Assembly: GCF_035917575.1 (NCBI RefSeq)
Contig: NZ_CP109090.1
Location: 3,162,001 to 3,226,000 of the forward strand
Origin: Streptomyces sp. NBC_01788
GTDB taxonomy: Bacteria > Actinomycetota > Actinomycetes > Streptomycetales > Streptomycetaceae
Direction of reading: 5' to 3'
DNA length: 64,000 nucleotides
The first letter of the stretch is position 1. Each line of letters opens with the position of its first letter. Of the stretch, positions 1,209 to 13,744 are shown one piece after another. The position numbers and the translations under genes are program-made. A model generated the notes under the pieces. That model ran no database searches. It was not told the DNA's origin and saw nothing but the letters and a program-made list of their open reading frames with translations.

Positions 1209-2993
1209 TCAGGCTGCGAGTTGGTGGCTGAGGCGGGTGAGTCTGCTGGTCCGAGGGCTGAGCGCCGTGTGGCCGGGGTTCCAGTGGGCGTCGAGTCGGA
1301 TGACGTTGAGGGCAGTGGCGGAGAAGGCGTGCTGGAGGCGGACCTTGGGCAGTCCGCGGTAGCGGGCCCGGCGGAGGCCGGTGACGTCGAGGGCCTGGTT
1401 GATGGTGCCCTCGATCCCAGCGCGGAGTGTGTACTTGTCCTTCCAGGTCTTCGTGATCTGCTCAGTTCGCGCTCTGGCCAGGGTCTCGTGGAGTTCTTGC
1501 GGCCGGAGGCTGAGGATGCGGGTGCCACGCGCGGAGGTGGTGCACTCGTCCTGGACGGGGCATGCGTGGCAGTCGGTGGGGGCGAACTGGACGACGATGG
1601 CGTCGCGGCCGTGCTGCCGGACGGGGAACCAGCCGGTGCTGGTGCGGCCCTGCGGGCAGCGGGCCTGGCGGGCCTTCCAATCGATACGGAAGGCGCTCTT
1701 CTGGAAGCCGGCGTCGGCCTTGGCCTGCGGTGAGTGGTCGAGGAGGGCCGGGGTGACCATGGTGATGCCGCGGCCGGCGGCGTCGTGGATCAGGTCGGCG
1801 GACGGGTAGCCGGCGTCGAGGTAGTGCTCGCCCGGCGTGAGGTCGCGGTCGGCGAGGTTTTGCTGGACGGGCCCGGTGGCCTTGACGTCTGGGACGCTTG
1901 CCTCAGTGGTGTAGACGTCCGTGATCAGCCGCAACGGCAGCACTTCGGCTTCGGCTTCGGCTTCGGCTTCGGCTTCGGCTTCGGCTTCGGCTTCGGCTTC
2001 GGCTTCGGCTTCGGCTTCGGCTTCGGCTTCGGTGGGAGTGTCGCAGGTTTCGGTGAGGTGGACCTTGTAGCCGAGCCAGAACAGATCGTCGCCCTTGGCC
2101 GCCCACCGCGCATCAGGGTCGTAGGGAGAGGCCAGGCGGAGATGGCCTGGCGGGACGCCCTCCTTGTCGGCTTCCCGCTTCACGATCACCTCCCGTTCCC
2201 GCGCGTCAGTGGATACGTAGTAGGTCTGCACGAGCATCCTGCGCAGGAACGCGACCGGCTCGATCTCCCGCAGCCATCCCGGCGCCCCGGGTGCCCAGAC
2301 CGCCCGGCAGAGCGCCAGCGCGTCCTGCCCGAACACCACGGCCAGCCGGTCCCGCTTCGACTTCGACGACGGCATCGTCCACCCGTTGACGCGTTCCTCG
2401 TAGCGGTGCGCGAGCTCGGGAACGTCCACCGCGTCGGCCAGCCAGCCCGGAGCCGCGACCGCAAGCGCCTCCAAGGCTGCCCGTACGCTCTCACCCGCGA
2501 GTTCGGTTCGGTTCAGGTCATGGACCGCGCTGATCACATGGGTGGAGTCGGTGCGCTGCTTGCCACCGGCCCCGACCAGGCCCTGCTCGCGGCAGACGTC
2601 CACGAGCCGGTCGAACACCACCCGCTCCATGCCGTGCTCCACGAGCCGGGTCCTGAAGCGGGACAGCACGGTCGCGTCGAAACCGGTATCGGTCAGTTCC
2701 GCGCCGATCGCGTACTTCCAGTCGATCGCGCGGACTGCCATCGCAGCGGCCTGCCGGTCGGTCAGGTTCTCCGCGAACTGCAGCACCGTGACCAGCGATA
2801 ACACCGCCGGCGGCAGGCCCGGCGCTCCACGGCGTCCGAACGCCCCGGTGAACGGCTCGTCCGCGAACACCTCGCCCAGCCGATCCCGCGCCCGCATCGC
2901 CAGTGTCCCGTGAGGGAACGCCGCCCGAGCGACAGCCACGGTCTGTGCCGGGATCTCTGGCAGCCCCTTCGGCTGCAACGACATCTGCTCCAC
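1209..2993 (-). CDS. IS1182-family DDE transposase with an internal Glu-Ala repeat
   Basis: This 594-residue transposase has the DUF772-type N-terminal domain (LPPAVLSLVTVLQFAENLTD, DWKYAIGAEL) followed by a DDE catalytic core. Likely catalytic residues are Asp in RTDSTHV, Asp in YLDAGYPSADL, and Glu in LRAGIEGTINQAL near the C-terminus. A cysteine-containing segment (CHACPVQDEC) lies between the second and third. About mid-protein a (Glu-Ala)15 tract, encoded by 15 perfect CCGAAG units, interrupts the core between KVHLTETCDTPT and VLPLRLITDVYT. Nothing breaks the reading frame. The family cuts and pastes its own element; activity with this expanded tract is unknown. Confidence 0.92.
   Translation of the reverse strand: MEQMSLQPKGLPEIPAQTVAVARAAFPHGTLAMRARDRLGEVFADEPFTGAFGRRGAPGLPPAVLSLVTVLQFAENLTDRQAAAMAVRAIDWKYAIGAELTDTGFDATVLSRFRTRLVEHGMERVVFDRLVDVCREQGLVGAGGKQRTDSTHVISAVHDLNRTELAGESVRAALEALAVAAPGWLADAVDVPELAHRYEERVNGWTMPSSKSKRDRLAVVFGQDALALCRAVWAPGAPGWLREIEPVAFLRRMLVQTYYVSTDAREREVIVKREADKEGVPPGHLRLASPYDPDARWAAKGDDLFWLGYKVHLTETCDTPTEAEAEAEAEAEAEAEAEAEAEAEAEAEAEVLPLRLITDVYTTEASVPDVKATGPVQQNLADRDLTPGEHYLDAGYPSADLIHDAAGRGITMVTPALLDHSPQAKADAGFQKSAFRIDWKARQARCPQGRTSTGWFPVRQHGRDAIVVQFAPTDCHACPVQDECTTSARGTRILSLRPQELHETLARARTEQITKTWKDKYTLRAGIEGTINQALDVTGLRRARYRGLPKVRLQHAFSATALNVIRLDAHWNPGHTALSPRTSRLTRLSHQLAA
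1943..2032 (+). repeat. Hexanucleotide microsatellite, 15 perfect CTTCGG units
   Basis: Ninety bases made of 15 identical CTTCGG copies lie inside the transposase gene, where they encode alternating Glu-Ala on the minus strand. The unit length is a multiple of three, so slippage alters protein length without a frameshift. The other frames give equally regular Arg-Ser, Pro-Lys and Phe-Gly runs, which explains several spurious open frames here. Confidence 0.97.
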
Positions 2994-3061
2994 CCCCTGC
3001 GGCCCACGACGCGACCAGGACCACAGAAGCGATCATGCCGCACCCGCGACGCTCACTCAGT

Positions 3062-3080
3062 CGAATTACGCAGCAGAGTC
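3062..3080 (-). repeat. Right terminal inverted repeat of the IS1182-type element
   Basis: Perfect 19-bp inverted copy of 1185-1203. It is followed by the right copy of the target duplication, CATCAG, at 3081-3086. Confidence 0.95.
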
Positions 3081-3143
3081 CATCAGGCGGTGCGGAGCCC
3101 GAGAAGTGAAAACTTCACGCACCTGCGGGAGAAGGGGCCGCGC

Positions 3144-3755
3144 TCACGTCGTGCTCGTGCCGCACGCCTCGTCGTGGACCGCCTTGCTGACATGCGGCTC
3201 GAAGACCTTGAGGACGGTCCAACTGGCGGCGTCGTCGAGGATTTTCCAGGTGGCGGTGGGGCGGGCGTCCATCGTCACGGTCGCGGTGTCCTGGTCCGTC
3301 GTGATGGAGATATGGAACCTCACCGGGAGCCTCAGCGATTTCCTGCAGATGAGGGTGAGCTTGCCGTGGGTGAATTCCTTGACCTCGTCGATCTCGGGGG
3401 CCGGGAGCTGCTTGAGAGCGTGCAGCACACTGTCAGTGAGCTGGTAGGCGGTCGTGCCGGAACGTATCGGCACGCGGATCTCCGCGGTGCACGGCAAGGG
3501 CACGGCCTCGGCGGACAGCGTCAGGCCATGGCGCGAGACCGCACGCGCGGCGTGCCACGTGTTCGTTGTGGGGAGCACGACGAACATGAAAGCGCTCAAC
3601 ACGAGGAATCCGAGCGTCCCCTGGAGCAGCGCGTCCGCCCAGGCGCTCGGATCCTCCCAGATGATGACACCAGCGATGAAGACGCCCGAGCAGGCGCCGA
3701 TGATGGCGATGACCACGGCGGCACGGCGTACGGTCACGAGCCAGTAGCTGAGCAT
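3144..3755 (-). CDS. Two-helix membrane protein with soluble C-terminal domain, unknown function
   Basis: This is a 203-residue protein. Two hydrophobic helices occupy about residues 9-32 (AAVVIAIIGACSGVFIAGVI) and 44-63 (LLQGTLGFLVLSAFMFVVLP). A soluble domain of about 135 residues follows, probably cytoplasmic by the charge pattern. It has alternating strand-like segments (AEIRVPIRSGTTAYQ, KLTLICRKSLRLPVRFHISI, TATVTMDAR), which suggests a mostly beta fold. It sits 130 bp behind the response regulator on the same strand and could be co-transcribed. The next gene downstream was cut off by the IS1182-type insertion. No family recognised. Confidence 0.65.
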   Translation of the reverse strand: MLSYWLVTVRRAAVVIAIIGACSGVFIAGVIIWEDPSAWADALLQGTLGFLVLSAFMFVVLPTTNTWHAARAVSRHGLTLSAEAVPLPCTAEIRVPIRSGTTAYQLTDSVLHALKQLPAPEIDEVKEFTHGKLTLICRKSLRLPVRFHISITTDQDTATVTMDARPTATWKILDDAASWTVLKVFEPHVSKAVHDEACGTSTT

Positions 3756-3885
3756 GGGTGAAGTTCCCGATTTTCTGTGTGAGAGGTGAACCGCACAGGA
3801 GAGGTGGGGATCCTACTTTCTTGTCGAAGCCTGTGATATGGCCGCCGGGAGCAGGCGGGGCTGCTCCCCAACGCGCCACCACGGC

Positions 3886-4488
3886 CTACAGCCAACCGTG
3901 GCGTTCGGCGATGCGGACGGCGTCGACGAGGGTGCGCGCGTGGAGCTTGCCGACAGCGGAGGAGAGCCGGTTGCGTACCGTGCCCAGGCTCAGGAAGAGA
4001 TCGGCGGCGATCTCACGGGCGTGGGCGCCGGAGGACGCCAGCCGCAGCACCTCTGTCTCCCGCTCGGTCAGAGGGCTGACCGTGTCGGCCCCGCCGTCCC
4101 GCATCCGCGGGTCGATCACGCGCCCACCGACGGCGACCCTGCGAATCGCGTCGGCGGTCTCGGCGGGGGTCACGGACTTGAGGAGGTAGCCGGACGCTCC
4201 GGCGCCCAAGGCACGCCCCAGATGCCCGGGCCGGTCCAGCGCCGTGAGCATCAGAACGCGGCATTCCGGCAGCTGTTCGGCGAGCGCTGCGGCAACGGCG
4301 ATGCCATCCCTGGCAGGCAGGTCGATGTCGAGGAGGACCACATCGGGCCGAAGCCGCTCGGCCTCGGCCAGTGCGGCCTCACCATCGGCGGCCTGACCCA
4401 CGACCCGTATACTCAGCTCGCCCGAGAGCAACGCCACCAGCCCGGACCGCACGACGGCGTGGTCCTCGACCACCAGCACTTTGATCAC
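3886..4488 (-). CDS. NarL/LuxR-family response regulator, no adjacent kinase
   Basis: This 200-residue protein has an N-terminal receiver domain: acidic pair at VVEDHAVVRSG, phospho-acceptor Asp in VVLLDIDLPA near residue 54, conserved Lys in YLLKSVTP near residue 104. The C-terminal LuxR helix-turn-helix contains LTERETEVLRLASSGAHARE and SLGTVRNRL. The start is GTG at 4488. A CACAAT hexamer (4495-4500, minus strand) six bases before it could be a -10 element giving a nearly leaderless transcript. Such regulators are normally encoded beside a HisKA_3 kinase, but none adjoins it. The nearest compatible kinase is the orphan at 13957, beyond the RHS locus. Targets are unknown. Confidence 0.9.
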   Translation of the reverse strand: MIKVLVVEDHAVVRSGLVALLSGELSIRVVGQAADGEAALAEAERLRPDVVLLDIDLPARDGIAVAAALAEQLPECRVLMLTALDRPGHLGRALGAGASGYLLKSVTPAETADAIRRVAVGGRVIDPRMRDGGADTVSPLTERETEVLRLASSGAHAREIAADLFLSLGTVRNRLSSAVGKLHARTLVDAVRIAERHGWL

Positions 4489-4787
4489 CGATCAATTGTG
4501 CCGGGCCGACAGGCGCGGTCGACGAGGAGCTGCTGGCACCTGGGGCCGGGTTCGGCCACGGAGCGCCCGCCGGACTCCGAAGCCCGCTGGCAGCGCTTGG
4601 GCGATGAGCCTCCCACGCCACTGACGGGCCACAGACAGGAGCGCTTACGCCCCGCCCAGCTGATCTGGGATTCTCCGTTCAGAGGGGCCGCCGCCGACGA
4701 TGGTCATCATGCCTGCGCTCGCTCCAGCAGGGCTTAACTCTTCGGCTCCCCGTAGCCGGTCGCTGCGAAAAATGTCCTGCCCAAGCG
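4489..4787. other. About 300 bp without a convincing gene
   Basis: Short frames run through this stretch on both strands but have no recognisable domain or good ribosome site. It holds the promoter side of the response regulator. It ends at the IS4 target duplication (CCCAAGCG, 4780-4787). Confidence 0.6.
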
Positions 4788-6241
4788 CCAATGCCGTTGC
4801 TTGAGAGGTGCAAGTAGTTCCTCTCCCCGGCACGGTGACCGCCGGTGTGTTGGTTCGTTGGCCGGACATGCATCCATGGATCGGGTTATCCGATGAGGTC
4901 CGGCTCGGGTTGCTCACCGAGTGGATCGTTCCTGAGCTGGTGGACGAGGTGCTGACCGCGTGTGGTCGGCGGGATGCCAAGCCCCGTCCCCTGTCGGGCC
5001 GGTTCATGGTCTACTTCGTGCTTGCTCTGGCGCTGTTCCAGCAGGACTCCTACGACGATGTCGCGGAGAACCTGGTCGGGGCCCTGGGCGAGATGGACCA
5101 GTCGGTGCCGAACAAGTCGTCGTTCACCAGGGCCCGCCAGCAGCTCGGGGCCGCACCGCTGGAAGGAGTGTTCCGCCGTGTGGCGGGGGCGATCGCTCCG
5201 CCCACACTCGAGGCGGCGTTCTGGCGCGGGATGAGAGTGGCCGCGGTCGACGGGTTCTTGCTGGACGTGCCGGAGAACGCTACGACACGTGCCGCTTTCG
5301 GTGGGCAGGTGGACAGTGCCGGCCGGCCCATCGGGTTCCCGCAGGCCAGGGTGGTGACGCTGACCGAGACCGGTACGCACGCGACGATCGACGCACGGAT
5401 AGGCAGCTTCAAGGGCGGTGGTGGCGAGCCCGCGCTGGCGACAGAGATGGCCGGTAGTGCCGTCGGCATGCTGGTGATCATGGACCGGGCCTTTCCCGGT
5501 GTCGCACTGTGGAAGGCCTACACTCAGGCCGGAGCACACCTGCTGATCAGAGCCCGCACCTTCGTCGCCGCGAAGCCCATGGAGATCTTGCCCGACGGGA
5601 CCTATCTGACCCGGATGAACCTCGCCGGGCAGCGGCGCTCCCATCCGGGCGGGGTGACAGTGAGAGTGATCGACTACCAGGTCGACGGCGGCGAGACGGT
5701 CAGGCTGCTGACCGACCTGCTCGATCCCGAGGCCGGGCCCGCCGAGCAGCTGGCAGCCCTGTATCACGAGCGCTGGGAGGTCGAATCCGCCTACCGGCAG
5801 CTGAAGACCTACCAGCGGGGAAAGGCCGAGGTGCTGCGGTCGGTGTCGCCGGAACTGGTACGGCAGGAGGTCTGGGCCCACCTGACCCTCCACCACTGTT
5901 TGAACCGGATCATCATGCGGCTGGCCGACGGCGAGGGTATGGACCCCGACTGGATCTCGTTCGTCAAGGTCCTCAAGCACACACGACGCAGCGTCGTCCT
6001 CCAGGCAGGCCGGTCGGCCCGCCGACTACGGCAGTTCACGACGCGGATGGCTGCGAAAGTCGTGCGCAAGCTCGACAACGGTCTCCGGCGGCTACGCGCG
6101 GCGGACCGCTACACCCGCCGTCCGGTCTCGCAGTACATCGTGCGCAGGAAAGGCCAGGCCAGGCGGGGCACACGACGGGTTCCCGAGAAGGCCATCACCC
6201 TTACGCCCGCGATACTTCAGTAGCTCAAGCAACGGCATTGG
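4788..6241 (+). mobile_element. Intact insertion sequence, IS4-type
   Basis: Perfect 18-bp terminal inverted repeats (CCAATGCCGTTGCTTGAG at 4788-4805, inverted at 6224-6241) enclose one full-length transposase. The flanks carry an 8-bp direct repeat, CCCAAGCG, at 4780-4787 and 6242-6249. This is a complete and apparently recent insertion. It lies immediately downstream, in the minus direction, of the last putative immunity gene of the RHS locus. Confidence 0.94.
4808..6223 (+). CDS. IS4-family transposase
   Basis: The protein has 471 residues from GTG 4808; an ATG at 4868 is an alternative start. It has the IS4-type N-terminal domain (LSGRFMVYFVLALALFQQDS) and a DDE core. Asp candidates are in AVDGFLLDVPEN and LVIMDRAFPG. 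The YREK signature is clear in YHERWEVESAYRQLK, matching Y-x2-R-x3-E-x6-K and supplying the catalytic Glu. The gene fills almost the whole element, with start and stop within 20 bp of the inverted repeats. It is uninterrupted and so probably functional. Confidence 0.93.
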   Translation: MQVVPLPGTVTAGVLVRWPDMHPWIGLSDEVRLGLLTEWIVPELVDEVLTACGRRDAKPRPLSGRFMVYFVLALALFQQDSYDDVAENLVGALGEMDQSVPNKSSFTRARQQLGAAPLEGVFRRVAGAIAPPTLEAAFWRGMRVAAVDGFLLDVPENATTRAAFGGQVDSAGRPIGFPQARVVTLTETGTHATIDARIGSFKGGGGEPALATEMAGSAVGMLVIMDRAFPGVALWKAYTQAGAHLLIRARTFVAAKPMEILPDGTYLTRMNLAGQRRSHPGGVTVRVIDYQVDGGETVRLLTDLLDPEAGPAEQLAALYHERWEVESAYRQLKTYQRGKAEVLRSVSPELVRQEVWAHLTLHHCLNRIIMRLADGEGMDPDWISFVKVLKHTRRSVVLQAGRSARRLRQFTTRMAAKVVRKLDNGLRRLRAADRYTRRPVSQYIVRRKGQARRGTRRVPEKAITLTPAILQ

Positions 6242-6259: not shown

Positions 6260-6436
6260 TCAGTCATCCGACCCCCGCTCAACCAGCCAGCCAATCGCCA
6301 GAATGATTGCCGAGCAGAAAAACAGCCGCTCGCCGTCCTTGTGTCCGTACAGGGCGGCTGCCGTGATGCCCAGTGCAAAAACGAAGACGCCGGACCAGAA
6401 CATCGCCCGCGATGTGCGCTTTGCTTGATTTGCCAC
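6260..6436 (-). CDS. Small two-helix membrane protein, candidate immunity protein of the orphan RHS tip
   Basis: This is a 58-residue protein from GTG 6436, with AGGGA about nine bases upstream. A basic N-terminus (VANQAKRTSR) leads into helix 1 (MFWSGVFVFALGITAAAL), a short polar loop with a Lys-Asp-Gly turn, helix 2 (LFFCSAIILAIGWLV) and an acidic tail. It follows the orphan RHS C-terminal module on the same strand, separated from it by a hairpin. That is the position expected for an immunity gene. Its layout resembles the protein at 7133-7324: basic start, helical hairpin with a Asp-Gly turn, and Cys-x2/3-Ile-Ile-Leu in helix 2. The function is inferred from position and layout only. Confidence 0.6.
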   Translation of the reverse strand: MANQAKRTSRAMFWSGVFVFALGITAAALYGHKDGERLFFCSAIILAIGWLVERGSDD

Positions 6437-6452
6437 GTAAATCCCTGTTCCC

Positions 6453-6484
6453 AGAACTGGCCGCCCGCTCGGGCGGCCAGTTCT
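6453..6484 (-). terminator. Strong hairpin between the orphan RHS tip and the small membrane gene
   Basis: A perfect 14-bp stem (6453-6466 with 6471-6484) closes a 4-base loop. It lies after the tip stop codon (6516) and before the GTG at 6436. No U-run follows on the minus strand, which is common for Streptomyces terminators. It may instead protect an RNA end. Confidence 0.6.
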
Positions 6485-6515
6485 TCTAGCGTAAATCTTC
6501 TACATCAGTGGGTGG

Positions 6516-7120
6516 TTACCAACGCCACGACCATGATTTGCGGTGCGAAGCGCGACTTGCGGCGTGTTTGCCGCCGCGCGGGAACCATCGGACCAGGGCC
6601 CGGCCGGCCCCGTACCGCGCTCCCGCACTGAGCCCCCACCCGGTGGCAGCGACTCCGCCGCCGTAGATGGCCGCGCGTCCGACCGAACCCCATGAGGCCT
6701 TGCGATTGCCCAGCTTCTTGGCGGCCCCACCTGCGATCATGCCGACGCCCGCAGCACAGAACGCGCCGGCCACTCCCATAGAGATCACGCCGCAGCCGAC
6801 TCCAGCGAGGCCGGCAGCGATTCCCACCCGGTGGCGCTTGACGAAGCTCTTGGTGTTACGCCATGCCTTCTTCCAGTTCACCTTGCCGTCGAGGTCGTAG
6901 CGGTTGAGCGGGTCGGCGTGGGCCTACTCGTAGGCGTTGGCGTTGCCGCCGTAGACCGTGTCGGGGGAGAGGAAGCGGCCGGTAGCGGGGTTGTAGAGGC
7001 GTACGCCCATCAGGACCAGGCCGGGCAGGGTCTCCGACGAGCGCCGTTTGACGCCGAGCCAGTTGCAGCTTGTGGCCTCCAGCCCCGGCCGGGTCGCCGC
7101 ACTCGTCCGAGTCCAGGGCG
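6516..7120 (-). pseudogene. Displaced RHS C-terminal module: broken core fragment plus an alternative tip
   Basis: From 7120 to about 6891 the sequence is a second copy of the end of the RHS core ([34 protein letters not shown], then LNRYDLDG). It matches the core of the large RHS gene at about 7797-8030. Two lesions break it. Two bases are missing in the stretch before NWLG, shifting the frame, and the Tyr codon after NAYE is TAG at about 6932-6934. Past DLDG an unrelated tip of about 125 residues stays open to the stop at 6516, with an internal ATG at 6881. The tip begins WKKAW..KRHRVG and then has a long Gly/Ala-rich hydrophobic region, followed by a basic end. It looks like a stored alternative toxin tip; the activity is unknown. 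Confidence 0.72.
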
Positions 7121-7132
7121 CTACATCGTGGG

Positions 7133-7324
7133 CTATTCTCGCGATCGTCTCCTTTTCACCCCTTCCCAAATTTCCTTGGCCGCACCCACTGAAATAGAAA
7201 CCCCCAGGATAATTTCGAGCGCCCCGCAGACCGGCGACCACCCATCACTGGAAAGCCTGCTCGCTCCACTCGCCAGCATGAACGGAACAAAAAAGAGAAG
7301 ACATGTCAGTTTGTATCTATGCAT
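7133..7324 (-). CDS. Small two-helix membrane protein, candidate immunity protein of the RHS toxin
   Basis: This protein has 63 residues from ATG 7324, with GGAAG just upstream. A GTG six codons earlier would give 69 residues. It starts MHRYKLTCLLFFVPFMLASG (helix 1), followed by a polar loop with Ser-Asp-Gly, helix 2 (CGALEIILGVSISVGA) and a charged tail (EIWEGVKRRRSRE). It is the first gene after the RHS stop codon, on the same strand and with low-GC codon use like the RHS tip. In polymorphic toxin loci this slot normally holds the immunity gene. Small membrane immunity proteins are known for toxins that attack membranes. The assignment is positional. Confidence 0.6.
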   Translation of the reverse strand: MHRYKLTCLLFFVPFMLASGASRLSSDGWSPVCGALEIILGVSISVGAAKEIWEGVKRRRSRE

Positions 7325-7360
7325 TACACTTCCAGGATTCACGACATTTCGACCAACGCC

Positions 7361-7395
7361 CTGACGGGGGACCGACAGATCCGGACCCCCGTCAG
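7361..7395. terminator. Hairpin between the RHS gene and its putative immunity gene
   Basis: A perfect 10-bp stem (CTGACGGGGG at 7361-7370 with CCCCCGTCAG at 7386-7395) and a 15-base loop lie just past the RHS stop (7409). On the plus strand it is followed by ATTTT. On the minus strand it is read between toxin and immunity gene, as in the second module at 6453-6484. Confidence 0.55.
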
Positions 7396-7408
7396 ATTTT
7401 AACTCCGG

Positions 7409-10400
7409 TCACCAACAACTCGATTTTCCGGTGTACTTTCTACAGACCGAGCGGCGGCCGTCCGACGTCAGGGAATCATTCCAATCGTTGCGGAATTGGC
7501 GATTCTTGTTCCAGTTGTTGAAGTCATTCATCACTGTCTGAACTCCCCAGACAGCTCCAGCGCAGTGAATAGCCCTACTACCGGATTTAGCGCATCGTTT
7601 CAGCGTGCCATGCGGACTCTTGGCGGCCCTCCACACATTCCTGGCCGTCTTTACGCGACCGAACGGTGCGACAAGTGCCGCCGTGCCGATCGCGAACTTT
7701 CCAGAATGGTAAATGCCGCGCCAATTAGGGTTGCGTCCCACACGGTGGCGCTTGTTATTGAACCGGTTCCACTGCTTCCTCACCCAGCTCGACCGCCCGT
7801 CCAGGTCGAACCGGTTGAGCGGATCGGCATGAGCGTACTCGTAGGCGTTCAGGTTGCCCCCGTACACCGGGTCCACCGACAGAAAGCGGCCAGTGGCGGG
7901 GTTATAGAGGCGAGCACCCATGAGCGTGAGACCGGTGAGGGTCTCGGTGGAGCGTTGCTTGGCGCCGAGCCAGTTGTAGCGGGTCGGTGCCTGGCCGGCT
8001 CGCGGGTTGCCGTACTCGTCCGAGTCCAGGGCGACCGGGGCCTTGCCCGCGTCCAGCGGGAGCTGGAACGCCACGTCGCCGTGGATGGTGGTGAGCTGCA
8101 GTACCGTGTCGCCGCTTTTGGCGGTGGTCGCCGCGAGGTCGCCGGAGGCCCCGTCGACGTTGCGGGTCAGGGCTCCTGTGGCGGTGTCCTCCACGATCCA
8201 GCGCGGGTTGTCGCCGTCGCCCCCGTAGTGGTTGAGCTTGGACGCGGTCTGCGTCCAGGTCGAGCCGCTGCCCGTCTCCACCTTCCACGAGCGGAACCGC
8301 AGGGCCGCGTCGAGCTGCCAGGTCTGACGCTTTCCGCCGGAGACCTGCTGGTACGCGAGGTCGTTGGCGTAGTAGCCGATGGTGCTGCCCGGCAGGGCGG
8401 TCGTACGGCCGAACGCGTCATAGGTGTACCCGGAGTTCACCAGCCGGTCGGCGCTGTCGTACGTGGAGTTGGCGGCGGTTCCTCCACTAGTGGGGCAGTC
8501 GGTGCCGGGCGCGCCCGCCGCCGTGGTCAGGGACTTGCGGTTGGTGCGCGCGTCGAAGGCGTAGCTGCGGCGCGTACAGACCGTCTCGGTGGTGTCCTCG
8601 ACCGTGGTGAGGCGGCCCGTGGCGTCGTAGCCGTAGTTCTGGTCGGACCAGCCGGCGTGGGTGGTGACCTGGCCGTGGATGGACTCGGTCACCGTGTCCG
8701 AGTAGACGATGGTGCCGTCGCTGTCACGGGTGTACGTGCGATCGACGGCGGAACCGGTGGGGTCGTTCGTCTGCTTGACGGTGTAGCCGCCGGGCAGCTT
8801 CTCGGTCACCACGGCCCCGGCGGCGTCGTACGTCGCCTGGAACGTGCCGGCGATCGAGTCGGTGGTCTTCGTGACCAGACCGCGCGGCTCGATGGCCGTG
8901 TCGTAGGTGTAGGTGACCGTCGACGGCACCGTGTCCGTTGCCTTGACCGGCCGGTCGAGCAGGTCGTACTCGGTTGTGGTCCTGCCGCCGTCGGCGTCGG
9001 TGTAGGCGATCTGGCGGCCGAGCTTGTCGTACGCCTTGGTGATCGTGCCGCCGGTGGGCGAGGTGGTCTTGGTCACCTTGCCGTTGTTCGGGTCGTACTC
9101 GGTGGTGGCCTCCGGTACGGCCTGGCCGAGCCCGCCGGTGACGGTGGTCTTGGTCGGCCGGCCCGCGGCGTCGTAGGTCGTGGTTGTCGTACGGGTGACG
9201 CCGTTGGCGGTCTCGGTGACCTTGGCCGTGTTGCCCCACCAGTCGTACTCGGTGTTGGTGGTCGGCAGCCCTGTCGGGTTGGAGCCGCCACCGGTGATCG
9301 CGCCGGCGGGTCCGACCGAGCAGAGCAGGTCGGCCCACTCCGGGCGGCCGGCGCAGGCGCCGGTGCCGGTCGCGGACCAGTACGTGGTCACGCGGGTTGC
9401 CGCGTCCGTGCCCGTCGCGCCGGGCAGGAGCTGCTTGACGGTACGCCCCTGGGCGTCGTACTCCGTGGTCTCGGTGATCGCCAGACCACCCGGATCCTTG
9501 ATCGTCTTGGTCGGCAGGCCCTTGACCCAGTCGTAGACGGTCTGGGTGACCCGGGTCTCGCCGTGGACGGAGGAGTGTTCGCGCACCTGGGCGCCGACAG
9601 TGACCTTGGTGATCTGGTCCTTGACCTTGGCCGTGCCGTCCGTGGGCCGGCCCGCGTCGTACTCGTTGACCGTCCACGTCCGGGCGGTGACCGAAGTGCC
9701 CGCGGAGACCAGCAAGGTGGTGCCCTGCTTCAGGTCGGCGGTGAGGTCGGTCCTGCGCAGCGGGCCGAACTCCTCCAGTGCTCGGATTCCGTTCTCGTTG
9801 TAGACGGAGCGAGTCGCCAGCAGGTCGCCGCGCTCGGCGCCGGTGAGCTGAGTGATGCCGAGGTCGGCCTGGGTGGCCTTGTCGTCGGCAGTCAGGCCCA
9901 GGGCGACGCCCCGATTGGCGGCGGTCAGTTCACGGACGGTGTTGCCGAAGCGGTCGTATTCGGTGGTGGAGATGTGCCCGCCGGGGGTGGCGGAGTTGAC
10001 CTCACGGCCGGATACGCCCAGGTAGTGCACATCGGCCCGCTTGTAGGCGGTCGCGGTCAGCGAGCCGCCGGAGTGCGAGGACGGCACGGCGTCGGCCGGG
10101 AAGACCGCGGTCGCGTCCGTCGGCGCGTCGAGCTGGCCCCATGCCTTCACGTCCGAGGCGCCCATCTTGTTCGGGGCGGCGGTGCCGGTCAGCGGCACGT
10201 CGTAGACGATGCTGGTGGCGGCCGTGCCCTCCGCGACATCGGCGGTGCCCTGCTTCAGCCCCGCGCGGGCCGCCTTGAGCAGCATGCCGTCACCGGCGGT
10301 CGCGGCGTTGCCCGCCTTGCCGTAGGTGAAGGTCCAGGGCAGTTCGCCGGGCGGGGTGAACTTGACGACACGGCCAGCGCTGTCGTACTCGTACTCGGTC

Positions 10401-13400
10401 TTGAGTGCGGGAGAGATACGCGGGTTCCAGGTCTCGCGCAGCCGCCCCTGCCCGTCGTACGCGTACGACTGGATGGCAAGGACCTTGGAGCTGGCCGCTC
10501 CGGGCTCGGTGGCCCACAGGCGGATGGACTTGACCTGACCCACCACGTCGCCGAACTCGATGTCCGTGGCGGTGGTGGTCAGCGGGTACAGGTATTCCAG
10601 GACCCGGCAGCCCTTGGTGGCCGGATCGGCCGTGCAGTCCGCGGCGGTCGCGGCTGAGGTGGGTGCGATGACCCACTTGGGCCGGGCGACGGCCTTGCCG
10701 TTGTAGGTGGTCTTCTGCGAGATCACCGTGGTGGTGGAGTTGGTCAGCCCGTCCAGCAGGGTGCTGGAGACCTGCCAGGTCGGCACGGTCGGATCGGGCT
10801 TGGTGAACTCCGTGACCGTGCCTTCGGTGTCGGAGAGCGTGAAGCTGCCGCTCACGCTGCCCTTGAGGGTCAGGTCCTCCGAGCCCGGCTCCGGAATCCA
10901 GCCCGACTTGGCCGCGTTCGCGGTGAAGTGGGTCTCCTCACCTTCGGAGTCGACCAAGGCCACGGCCGTGTCGGAGATCCTGCGGATGTGGGAGTAGTCG
11001 GAGTCCGTCAGCTCGGCGGTCGCACCCGACACCCATTCCTTGCCGAAGATCGGCGCCTGTCCCTCCTGGGTGGCACCCTTCTCCGGTGTGCGGGACGAGG
11101 CGGTACGCGTGACGGACATGTCGAACGCGGAGGCATCCGTGGCCGACAGGCCGAAGTCGCCGGTCAGCATGTTCACCGTGCCAGGACCCACGCCCTGGCT
11201 TGCGGCGCCGTCAGCGTTGCGATCGACGACGACGGTCAGCGGCTCGGTGCTGCCGGAGGCGTTGCCCGGGCCGGTGAAGTCGGCCTTGATCTGCACCGTG
11301 CCGTCGGGGTCGACGGTGTCGGTGGCGTTCCAGACCAGCTGCGCGTTCTTGCCGCCTGTCAGCGAAACGGGCCACGCGGTCAGCGGGGTACCGCCGGAGG
11401 TCACGTGACCGGCGGGAATCTTGTCCCAGTTGTCGGCCTCGGAGCGCCGCCAGAAGAAGGACACCGCGTTGTACTTGGTGCCGTCGGCCTCCGCGACGAG
11501 GGGGAGCCGGCGTGCGGTGCGTTCGCCGTCGTTGGGCTGGATGAAGCCGCCGGGGCCTGCGTGGAAGGTGTACTCGGCCGCCTCGGACTTGTTGTCCGCC
11601 TTGTCCACGGCCCGCACCTGCAGCGTGTGGGTGCCGTCCTTCGGCGGGGCGATGCTGATCGCCTTGTTCGCGCTGGAGCCGCTCGTGGTCACCTTGGTCC
11701 AGGTGATGCCGTCCAGCGACCATTCCAGCCAGTTGTGGTCACCGCCGGCGGGCGGGGTGACCGTGAACGTGCCGGCCTGGCCGGTGCCCTTGACCCACTT
11801 GTCCGACGGGTAGTCCGTGGAGACGATCTTCGTCGGGGCGGACGGTGCCTTGGTGTCGACCGTGAAGGTCTTCCACGCCGACCAGCCAGTGTTGTAGTGC
11901 GTGCCGTCGTAAGGGCTGGTGCGGAACTTGTAGGTCTTGCCGTCCGCGAGCACCCCGGCCGGGACGGTCACCGACGCGACCTGCCCGGAGGGCACGTACT
12001 TCGACACCAGGACGTTGCCGACCTGGGCGTTGGTGACGGAGTCGAAGATCTGGAACGTGCCGTTGACCTTGTCGCCGTCGGCGTCGACGAAGGTGTCCCG
12101 CAGGGTGGGCGTGGTGGTGTTGACGACGTAGTCGCCGCCGTAGGAGAAGTACGGCGGGCCGGCCTCCTGCTTGGTGCCGGTGCGCGGGCGGTAGTTGTAG
12201 TTGACGACCAGCTTCGGCGGGTTGGATGCGGCGTTGGCGGAGTTGACGCGCTTCCACTGGGCCACGACCGCTTCGCTCGTGGCTTGGATGCCCATGTGGC
12301 CGCGGGTGGTCTTGGCCGAGGCCCACTCCTGCGCCAGCGTGGTCACATTGGCGTTGATCCAGCCCGCGGGCTGGGTGCTGGTGCACGACGAGTTGCCGCG
12401 GGTCTCGGTGGAGGTGGCCTTCAGTGCCGTCATCGTCGGGCGGTTGGTCCACCGACTGGAGGTGGAGGCGGCGGGGGAGGACCACACCTCCCACGGGTAC
12501 GCCTTGCAGTCGACGTTGTTGCCCGAGTGGAAGTTCCATAGCGACAGCTTCGCGTCGAGGACCAGCGCGTCCTGGATGGGTGTGGTGTTCCAGGAGATGA
12601 AGGTCTGCGCGGTGCGCGGGGTGCCGTCGGCGTTCTTGGTGCCGGGGTTGCCCCAGTCGAGCTCGGTGTCGGCCGACTGGTCGACCGTCACGCCCTGCTG
12701 CACGTAGGTGTCGAAGACGTTGGAGAGCGAGGAGGTGGACGGGTCAATGGTGACCGGGTACTTGGCGGCCGGGTCGGCGAGGAACTCGGCGTCCGGGGTG
12801 ATCACCAGGTCGACGGAGGCGCCCTTCTGGACCACCTTCAGGCCGACCCTGGCCTTGCGGGTGTGCTCACCGGAGCGCTCGTCGACGGTGGCGTCCCACA
12901 TCACCGGGGCCGGCATCACGGCCCGCTTCTTGTTCTTCCTGTCGGTGAACAGCACGCTGCCGTCGGCGAGTTGCGTCGCCTTCAATCCCTTGGCCTTCAG
13001 CGGAAGGGTGTAGGAGTAGCCGCCCGCGTCACCGGTCTCGGGATGCTGCTTGAGTTCGACGTACTGCTCGAACCCGGTCCGGGTGGCCTCCACGACCACG
13101 TCCGCGCCCGGTACGGCGTTGGAATACTCCGCCCGCGTACCGTCCAGCTTCGGCTGCGGCAGCCCGCCCTTCCACTGCAAGGTGATCTGCTGGTCGCCCT
13201 CGCCCAGGGTCACCAGGTCGGTGGCCTCGGCCCGCTGAGCGGCCTCCAGCGACTTCGCCGGGGTCCCGGACCTGCCGGACAGGCGCAGGCCTCCCGGGTG
13301 CGCCTTGGGTTCGACGGTCCCGTCGGCCCCCCGGACGAGATCCAGGTCGACCTCGCGCCACTCTCCCGTGGGCTCGTCCTTGAACCGGACGGGACCGGCG

Positions 13401-13744
13401 GAGAGTTCGGTGGTGAGCGAGCCGTCCTTGTTCACCCAGGTCGTGGAGGTCTCGGTACGCTCGGACAGCGCCTCGACCCGCTTGCCGGACAACCGGGCCG
13501 CGACCTTCGCGGAGGGGATGTCCGCGGCGGCGTCAGGGCTCTTGGGCGTACTCCTGTCGGCTGTCTGCCGGGTCTTCTCCCGGTGGAGTGCCACCGCCTG
13601 ACCGGTGGTGGCGACCGCTACCGCCGCCTCCGCGGCAAGCACCATCGCGGTCAGGGCCGCGATGCGGGGCAATAGCCGTCTGCGTCTCTGCAGGGCGACG
13701 GCCGACCCCTCCCACTCATCGGTGGGTGGTATTCGCTCTGACAC
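7409..13744 (-). CDS. Secreted RHS/YD-repeat polymorphic toxin-like protein
   Basis: This is a 2,111-residue protein from GTG 13744, which has AGAGGG nine bases upstream; a TTG at 13789 is less likely. A basic N-terminus and one hydrophobic helix ([20 protein letters not shown]) form a signal or anchor. A DNRLRE-like region lies near residues 345-518 ([30 protein letters not shown]), followed by fibronectin/Ig-like segments. Many YD repeats span about 1120-1920 ([30 protein letters not shown]). The RHS core signature [18 protein letters not shown] sits near 1950 and ends at PLNRFDLDG. The last 128 residues are a tip unlike the rest, with lower GC, Asn/Trp/Lys-rich and with several Cys. By family knowledge the core shields and delivers the tip. 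The tip activity is not recognised. Confidence 0.9.

What the first reader, a model, noticed from the sequence alone, without database searches (positions are those of the whole stretch)
6260..13744. RHS polymorphic-toxin locus with two alternative tips, each followed by a small helical-hairpin membrane protein
Seen: the big RHS gene and the displaced second module both end their core at PLNR(F/Y)DLDG. Both then enter a different tip of nearly equal length (128 and about 125 residues), each tip starting with two Trp and KRHRVG at the same place. Each tip is followed by a protein of about 60 residues with a basic start, two hydrophobic helices around an Asp-Gly turn, and a Cys..Ile-Ile-Leu stretch in helix 2. 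Known: RHS loci keep a toxin tip, a cognate immunity gene and sometimes spare tip-immunity cassettes. Inference: two cognate pairs of one family. The Gly/Ala-rich hydrophobic orphan tip and the membrane immunity candidates suggest toxins that act at the membrane. I know no described family with these tips.
Basis: partly seen in the sequence, partly recalled or inferred. Interest (0 to 1): 0.85.

Follow-up and report, generated by a model that had tools for sequence, protein, structure and literature searches.

The report
Two membrane-toxin tips with membrane immunity
A Streptomyces cell-surface weapon gene ends in one toxin tip and keeps a spare, broken-off second tip beside it; each tip is followed by a tiny two-helix membrane protein that most likely protects the producer, which suggests that these toxins attack the target cell's membrane or envelope rather than its DNA or RNA.

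Summary
Observation confirmed, with small corrections. A 2111-residue RHS gene (7409-13744, minus strand) ends in a 128-residue tip (tip1) followed by a 63-residue two-helix protein (imm1). Downstream lie a broken RHS core remnant, a 122-residue tip (tip2) and a 58-residue two-helix protein (imm2). Neither tip nor either small protein matches a known family above its curated cut-off. The linkage recurs: own locus included, imm1 follows 6 of 6 close tip1 relatives and imm2 11 of 12 strong tip2 relatives. It fails in 3 of 3 distant plasmid-borne tip1 relatives examined. Both pairs evolve under purifying selection. 'One family' is not supported: imm1 and imm2 are unrelated by profile, and the tips share only the first 21 residues. 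imm2 is, however, homologous to the immunity of an unrelated hydrophobic tip family. Among 30 tips with the same entry segment, hydrophobic ones are followed by membrane proteins in 16 of 16 cases, the others in 1 of 14. Best reading: two cognate toxin-immunity pairs, tip2 (confident) and tip1 (less so) acting at the target membrane, like Tse5/Tsi5 and the CDI ionophores. No structure could be predicted and nothing was tested by experiment.

The parts
7409..13744 (-). RHS/YD-repeat polymorphic toxin gene, 2111 aa, N-terminal basic-hydrophobic export signal or anchor (by eye), C-terminal Rhs-associated core ending ...PLNRFDLDG
   Evidence: translation; RHS_repeat E 1.6e-14; Rhs_assc_core E 4.1e-14 at 1910-1983; similar to solved Rhs proteins 8qja, 7q97, 8h8a
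7412..7795 (-). tip1, 128 aa, the tip in use; four invariant Cys (68, 78, 118, 127)
   Evidence: relatives
7133..7324 (-). imm1, 63 aa, two predicted membrane helices, basic C-terminus; start ATG 7324 with GGAAG upstream, 84 bases after the tip1 stop
6885..7120 (-). displaced remnant of the RHS core 3' end, broken by a frame change and an in-frame stop (6924-6926)
6516..6884 (-). tip2, 122 aa, displaced (orphan) tip; Gly/Ala-rich hydrophobic hairpin, 22 Lys+Arg and no Asp/Glu
   Evidence: intact relatives at the end of about 2100-aa RHS genes
6260..6436 (-). imm2, 58 aa, two predicted membrane helices, N and C termini predicted inside; 79 bases after the tip2 stop
4788..6241 (+). insertion sequence: transposase-like ORF 4808-6223 (IS4-like by look, recalled) between 18-bp inverted ends at 4788-4805 and 6224-6241; ends 18 bp from the imm2 stop
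   Evidence: sequence, inverted ends checked; ORF; family name recalled, not searched

Best explanation
The locus is a polymorphic RHS toxin system in Streptomyces. The big protein is exported and carries its last about 128 residues as a toxin tip, released from the Rhs shell after the DLDG motif. In the target cell the tip acts at the cytoplasmic membrane (tip2: confident; tip1: less so, perhaps from the outer face, given its four invariant Cys), most simply by inserting and letting ions through. The gene just behind each tip makes a two-helix membrane protein that sits in the producer's own membrane and blocks that tip. Tip2 and imm2 are a displaced spare cassette: imm2 still protects, and tip2 is silent unless recombination through the shared core end brings it into use. 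Shown here: the anatomy, the recurrent pairing, purifying selection, and (within one tip cluster) the match between hydrophobic tips and membrane partners. Inferred: toxicity, export, release, membrane insertion, neutralisation.
For: Pairing: own locus included, imm1 homologues directly follow 6 of 6 close tip1 relatives (own; L136; L010/L137; L011/L139; L012/L138; fragment L013), imm2 homologues 11 of 12 strong tip2 relatives. Reverse: an imm2 profile in 392 Streptomyces genomes gives 17 hits at E <= 8.2e-6. Six are rows of the profile itself. Of the 11 others, 6 lie right behind an RHS tip (all C1 type), 1 is displaced inside an RHS locus beside a tip2 remnant, 3 are solitary and 1 sits at a contig end with its upstream side missing. 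Selection: dN is below dS in all 13 comparisons of tips and small proteins (ratio 0.14 to 0.6 where dS is not saturated). Site of action: of 30 tips sharing the entry segment (cluster C0), the next gene is membrane-like in 16 of 16 hydrophobic tips and 1 of 14 others (Fisher 1.2e-7; counted by groups of related tips 9 of 9 against 1 of 8, p 4e-4). Control: behind 43 ordinary long genes of the window the next ORF is membrane-like in 9 and small membrane-like in 1. Shared immunity: imm2 is homologous to the immunity of another hydrophobic tip family, C1 (hhalign 98.3%, E 1.5e-14; HMM E 2e-12 to 7e-6). Precedent: Tse5-CT, an Rhs tip that makes pores, has Tsi5 with two predicted membrane regions (PMC9637101, passages).
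Against: No structure or assay. Tip1 has no strong hydrophobic segment. Distant tip1 relatives on Streptomyces plasmids (28-33% identity; 3 of 7 records examined, two of these displaced fragments without a core) have no small membrane ORF behind them; L145 carries tip2 without imm2. Outside cluster C0 hydrophobic tips and membrane next genes are not correlated (13 of 23 against 36 of 59, p 0.80), and cluster C3 has hydrophobic tips with soluble next genes. Only 6 of the 14 tips of cluster C1 have an imm2-like partner. The C0 tips are related to each other, so its p-values overstate. GxxxG motifs in tip2 are no more than composition gives (5 against 4.4).
Confidence: 0.66

Rival explanations
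1. The small membrane proteins protect by blocking uptake of the tip at the membrane, not by binding a membrane-acting toxin; the tips could then act anywhere.
For: Proposed in print for the two-helix immunity families Imm-CdiI and Imm17 (PMC3482391, passage). One immunity family (imm2-like) goes with two tip families that show no sequence likeness.
Against: C0 tips with the same entry segment but without a hydrophobic stretch have soluble next genes in 13 of 14 cases, 11 of these 13 acidic, so the partner follows the payload, not the entry segment.
Confidence: 0.15
2. Tip2 is only the membrane-crossing (pre-toxin) module of a longer toxin that lost its payload; tip2 is not itself toxic.
For: A similar hydrophobic stretch stands before a pretoxin HINT domain in L153 and L154 (profile E 8e-5 and 9e-5; PT-HINT E 2e-13 and 8e-12). 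L071, weakly alike at its front (E 4.4e-5), and L109, in the same cluster C0, also carry HINT.
Against: Hairpin-only tips end intact about 2100-aa RHS genes in several genomes, show dN below dS, and keep a dedicated membrane partner (11 of 12).
Confidence: 0.12
3. Tip1 is a soluble enzyme with an extracytoplasmic target (wall or a surface protein), held by two disulfides, with imm1 shielding that target from the membrane.
For: Four Cys invariant in 5 of 5 aligned tips and visible in the plasmid relatives L163 and L164; no strong hydrophobic segment; imm1 loop predicted outside.
Against: No enzyme family matched; the best solved-structure hits are colicin E7 at E 0.4, chance level.
Confidence: 0.25

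Closest known systems
Tse5-CT / Tsi5 (Rhs effector of Pseudomonas aeruginosa, T6SS)
   Same: Rhs tip of 149 aa without predicted function; immunity with two predicted membrane regions; membrane site of action (PMC9637101, passages read)
   Different: T6SS-delivered, PAAR-like N-terminus, Gram-negative; here a signal-like N-terminus in Streptomyces. Sequences not compared directly (none fetched).
CDI ionophore toxins (CdiA-CT EC93 group) and hydrophobic CdiI
   Same: Polymorphic helical membrane toxins with hydrophobic, cognate immunity; entry domain plus ionophore domain (PMC11630599, passages)
   Different: CdiA context with VENN motif (absent here) and five-helix bundles (fold not testable here)
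Imm17 and Imm-CdiI
   Same: Small proteins of two membrane helices in polymorphic toxin loci (PMC3482391, passages)
   Different: Imm17's WxW motif is absent from the loops of imm1 and imm2; Imm17 is not listed there for Actinobacteria
Tox-WTIP pore-forming domain
   Same: RHS-linked, two membrane-spanning helices (PMC3482391)
   Different: Its Wx[ST]IP motif is in neither tip; listed for proteobacteria
Orphan rhs-CT/rhsI and cdiA-CT/cdiI modules
   Same: Displaced tip plus immunity behind the main gene, same direction, homologous core piece, transposase next door (PMC4927057, passages)
   Different: Here the core piece is itself broken

Membership tests
RHS polymorphic toxin system | RHS/YD repeats and Rhs-associated core before a variable C-terminal tip | tested here: met
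   same core with 116 distinct tips in 118 loci examined
RHS polymorphic toxin system | cognate immunity gene directly behind the tip | tested here: met
   6 of 6 (tip1, close relatives, own included) and 11 of 12 (tip2, own included); 0 of 3 examined for distant tip1 relatives
RHS polymorphic toxin system | tip is toxic and immunity rescues | not testable with these tools
   needs expression assays
Orphan tip-immunity module | displaced core fragment in the same direction, tip and immunity behind it | tested here: met
Tse5/Tsi5-like pore-forming Rhs pair | sequence or fold homology to Tse5-CT | tested here: inconclusive
   no meaningful Pfam, NCBIfam, PHROGs or PDB-sequence match for the tips; Tse5 itself not fetched; fold not available (structure machine busy)
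Tse5/Tsi5-like pore-forming Rhs pair | immunity with two membrane helices | tested here: met
   hydropathy; prediction only
Tse5/Tsi5-like pore-forming Rhs pair | depolarises the membrane, forms pores | not testable with these tools
   needs assays
CDI ionophore family | glycine zipper GxxxGxxxG | tested here: inconclusive
   tip2 has one; 0.78 expected from composition
CDI ionophore family | CdiA/VENN context | tested here: not met
   RHS context; no VENN in the 2111-aa protein
Imm17 | WxW and Arg between two membrane helices | tested here: not met
   loops: no WxW in imm1 or imm2; no Pfam match above cut-off
Tox-WTIP | RxxR and Wx[ST]IP motifs | tested here: not met
   no W-x-[ST]-I-P in tip1 or, by eye, tip2 (sequence)

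The most novel reading that the evidence does not exclude
Streptomyces RHS systems hold a large, unnamed arsenal of membrane-acting tips. In part of it the hydrophobic hairpin that elsewhere precedes a HINT-released payload stands alone and has itself become the weapon. One small two-helix immunity superfamily has spread between such hairpin tips and an unrelated hydrophobic tip family (C1).
Probability: 0.3. Interest if true: 0.72.

Novelty: new variant of a known kind. Interest (0 to 1): 0.55.

Why it matters
All but a few of the immunity proteins catalogued in 2012 were soluble and cytoplasmic (PMC3482391, passage), so membrane toxins may be under-counted. Here is a Gram-positive genus in which tips with the same front end split by payload: soluble payload with soluble partner, hydrophobic payload with membrane partner. 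It also offers one immunity family facing two unrelated hydrophobic toxins, which makes the question of how a two-helix protein neutralises a membrane toxin directly testable. The small immunity genes are easily left out of annotation, which would hide such loci (inference).

Tried and rejected
Considered and rejected: (1) one family for both pairs: imm1 against imm2 hhalign probability 0.4%, tips alike only over residues 1-21. (2) Known nuclease or enzyme tips: no match above a curated cut-off in Pfam or NCBIfam and none at a meaningful E-value in PHROGs, PADLOC or PDB sequences. Sub-threshold hits taken as chance: imm1 to YfiM (E 0.005, 17 bits against a cut-off of 117), imm2 to MatE (E 0.027), tip2 to phrog_3454 (E 0.019) and METTL5 (E 0.27), tip1 to colicin E7 (E 0.4). 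(3) Glycine zipper as proof of pore formation: not above composition. (4) Imm17 or Tox-WTIP membership: motifs absent. (5) Linkage as a by-product of any RHS end: C0 tips without a hydrophobic stretch have soluble partners. (6) An earlier notebook entry calls the hit L179 a composition artefact; one search shows it is a real imm2-like protein at a contig end, and the report follows.

Limits of the survey: core-end matches at E 1e-8 were found in 203 of 392 genomes. I examined 118 loci (124 core ends, 116 distinct tips), mostly the best-scoring matches, not a random set; 8 of the loci had come in through the tip searches. I left out two matches at contig ends and three that I took for duplicate copies, and fetched nothing that scored below about E 4e-26. 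114 tips of 60 aa or more with a stop entered; two had no candidate next gene and dropped out. The automatic choice of next gene is crude: for the window's own tip1 it picked a wrong overlapping ORF instead of imm1, counted as non-membrane; the picks for L074 and L080 also look wrong (positively charged). The 1.6 hydropathy cut-off was not tuned, but 1.4 and 1.8 give 16 of 19 against 1 of 11, and 13 of 13 against 4 of 17. Over all clusters the test is weaker: 18 of 20 against 20 of 41 fine clusters, p 0.0019; per tip 29 of 39 against 37 of 73, p 0.017. The group count 9 of 9 against 1 of 8 was made by hand, the one mixed group split in two (one search gives its p). Weak hits (E above about 1e-5) were looked at only in part. 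Only 3 of the 7 plasmid records were opened. Tip2 had no match on plasmids. The profile comparison of small proteins inside one search gave no output; it was done with protein comparison.

Literature: the searches (the last found none) listed no title on these Streptomyces tips; one search showed 15 of 21 papers, 9 of 10. I read passages only of PMC3482391, PMC11630599, PMC9637101 and PMC4927057, and saw listings with abstract starts for the rest.
Full report
What is there. On the minus strand of the window an RHS gene runs from a GTG at 13744 to a stop at 7409 and encodes 2111 residues with a basic-hydrophobic N-terminus, RHS/YD repeats and an Rhs-associated core. After ...PLNRFDLDG come 128 residues (tip1). 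84 bases after the tip1 stop starts imm1, 63 residues (7324-7136). Directly behind imm1 lies a piece of RHS core (6885-7120), 77% identical in DNA to the end of the main core, broken by a frame change and an in-frame stop. After the stop it leads, through ...PLNRYDLDG, into a 122-residue tip (tip2, 6519-6884); 79 bases on follows imm2, 58 residues (6436-6263). An insertion sequence with 18-bp inverted ends stops 18 bp beyond imm2.

Is it real coding sequence? Against relatives, dN is below dS in all 13 comparisons made for tips and small proteins, for example tip2 against L142 dS 1.06, dN 0.15; imm2 against L142 dS 0.64, dN 0.17; imm1 against L011 dS 1.51, dN 0.45; the weakest is imm2 against L019, dS 1.21, dN 0.73. 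The displaced tip2 and imm2 thus descend from genes kept by selection, although this does not show that this copy is still used.

Does the pairing recur? Tip1 was found in 8 of 392 Streptomyces genomes at E 0.001, five of them strong (own, three nearly full-length, one fragment), and in four named contigs of the 84,980-genome collection. All 6 distinct close relatives, own included, have an imm1 homologue right behind the tip. Tip2 has 12 strong members, own included, (392 genomes; 394 genomes of the family); 11 have an imm2 homologue behind, L145 has none in its 1.5 kb. Running it backwards, an imm2 profile hit 20 of 392 genomes. Of 22 hits, 17 have E at most 8.2e-6, and 12 of these lie directly behind an RHS tip. 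Six of the 12 are rows of the profile itself, so the independent count is 11 hits: 6 behind an RHS tip (all C1 type), 1 displaced within an RHS locus beside a tip2 remnant, 3 solitary, 1 at a contig end whose upstream side is missing. In the 5 weaker hits no RHS core was found. Against: distant tip1 relatives on plasmids of S. canus and S. hygroscopicus (28-33% identity; four Cys in L163 and L164; the S. canus copies are fragments without a core) lack any small membrane ORF behind the tip; 3 of 7 records were examined.

Are the two pairs one family? No. imm1 and imm2 profiles do not match (probability 0.4%). The tips align only over their first 21 residues (probability 47%). What they share is an entry segment (two Trp, Lys/Arg-rich, KRHRV) that resembles the front of many other tips, including tips with soluble partners.

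Where do the toxins act? I used the RHS core end as bait and examined 118 loci. They hold 116 distinct tips, of which 114 fall into 31 clusters, which shows how strongly this core swaps tips. In cluster C0, 30 tips sharing the entry segment, the next gene is membrane-like behind 16 of 16 hydrophobic tips and 1 of 14 others (p 1.2e-7); by groups of related tips it is 9 of 9 against 1 of 8 (p 4e-4). Of the 13 soluble next genes 11 are acidic, as expected for partners of basic nucleases. Because the entry segment is the same, the partner follows the payload and not the way in. This speaks for a membrane site of action of tip2 and against the idea that two-helix immunity proteins merely block uptake, which PMC3482391 suggested for Imm17 and Imm-CdiI. 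Outside C0 the correlation is absent (13 of 23 against 36 of 59), and cluster C3 has hydrophobic tips with soluble partners, so hydrophobicity alone proves nothing. As a control, the same rule applied behind 43 ordinary long genes of the window gives 9 membrane-like next ORFs, 1 of them small. Tip2 has no acidic residue, 22 basic ones and 39% Gly+Ala. Tip1 is different: weakly hydrophobic, with four invariant Cys, so an extracytoplasmic action on or at the membrane is plausible but open. Both small proteins are predicted as hairpins with both ends inside (Lys+Arg totals for the imm2 family: N 25, loop 12, C 24; for imm1: 8, 8, 30, so there the N end is undecided).

A possible origin of tip2. 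The tip2 profile also finds, weakly, a hydrophobic stretch in two much longer RHS tails, L153 and L154 (E 8e-5 and 9e-5), where it is followed by a pretoxin HINT domain. So a module that elsewhere seems to help a payload across the membrane may here stand alone as the weapon. The alternative, that tip2 lost its payload and is dead, is hard to square with intact relatives on full-length RHS genes and a dedicated partner.

The spare cassette. In CB01373 tip1 and imm1 are about 95% identical to the window and the flanking DNA 91-96%, while tip2, imm2 and the insertion sequence are absent and the RHS gene there has a large internal deletion. So tip2 and imm2 vary within the species. The main core end differs by 14% between the two strains while tip1 and imm1 differ by 5%, which points to recombination in the core. 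The displaced module fits the orphan tip-immunity modules described for CDI and Rhs loci (PMC4927057, passages). The simplest function now is protection by imm2; re-use of tip2 would need recombination.

Known or new? The kind is known: Rhs tips that depolarise membranes with a two-helix partner (Tse5/Tsi5, PMC9637101, passages) and CDI ionophores with hydrophobic immunity (PMC11630599, passages). New here, as far as the searched libraries and paper listings show, are the tip families, the imm1 and imm2 families, the sharing of the imm2 family between unrelated hydrophobic tips, and the payload-partner contrast in cluster C0. I score it as a new variant of a known kind, interest 0.55. The decisive gaps are structure and toxicity.

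Noticed in passing
L161 (Streptomyces sp. CB01373) 2920-5656 and window 9704-13512: In a same-species strain the RHS gene has lost about 3.8 kb internally and runs out of frame after its N-terminus, while tip1 and imm1 are intact; an assembly error is possible.
   Followed up: partly
window 7796-8031 against L136/L161: The main core end is 86% identical to the same-species strain although tip1 and imm1 are about 95% and the flanks 91-96% identical; the nearest core by DNA among the loci held is L149 (87%), which carries another tip.
   Followed up: partly
L084, L086, L087 and others (cluster C3): Seven RHS tips with a strongly hydrophobic front and a soluble tail; next genes soluble, in five of seven with the pattern LWHxxH (the other two picks look wrong), apparently a different toxin-immunity family.
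   Followed up: no
L054, L065, L070, L077, L079, L104, L114 (part of cluster C1): Hydrophobic tips, six of seven ending YPWRGxC; partners of six belong to the imm2 superfamily, the seventh (L079) ends at a contig end.
   Followed up: partly
L172, L174, L178: Solitary imm2-like genes with no RHS core, tip1, tip2 or C1 tip found within 1.5 kb; candidate orphan immunity genes.
   Followed up: partly
L031/L023 and L186 (G043): Further RHS loci with spare cassettes: a third tip type behind the first in G340; a displaced imm2 with a tip2 remnant between two RHS ends in G043.
   Followed up: partly
own genome C1:1348487, 1409140, 3343988, 3362178, 3405079: RHS repeats in five further long open frames (1682-3703 aa) of the same genome; the one at 1409140 ends in an unrelated tip (L060).
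   Followed up: no
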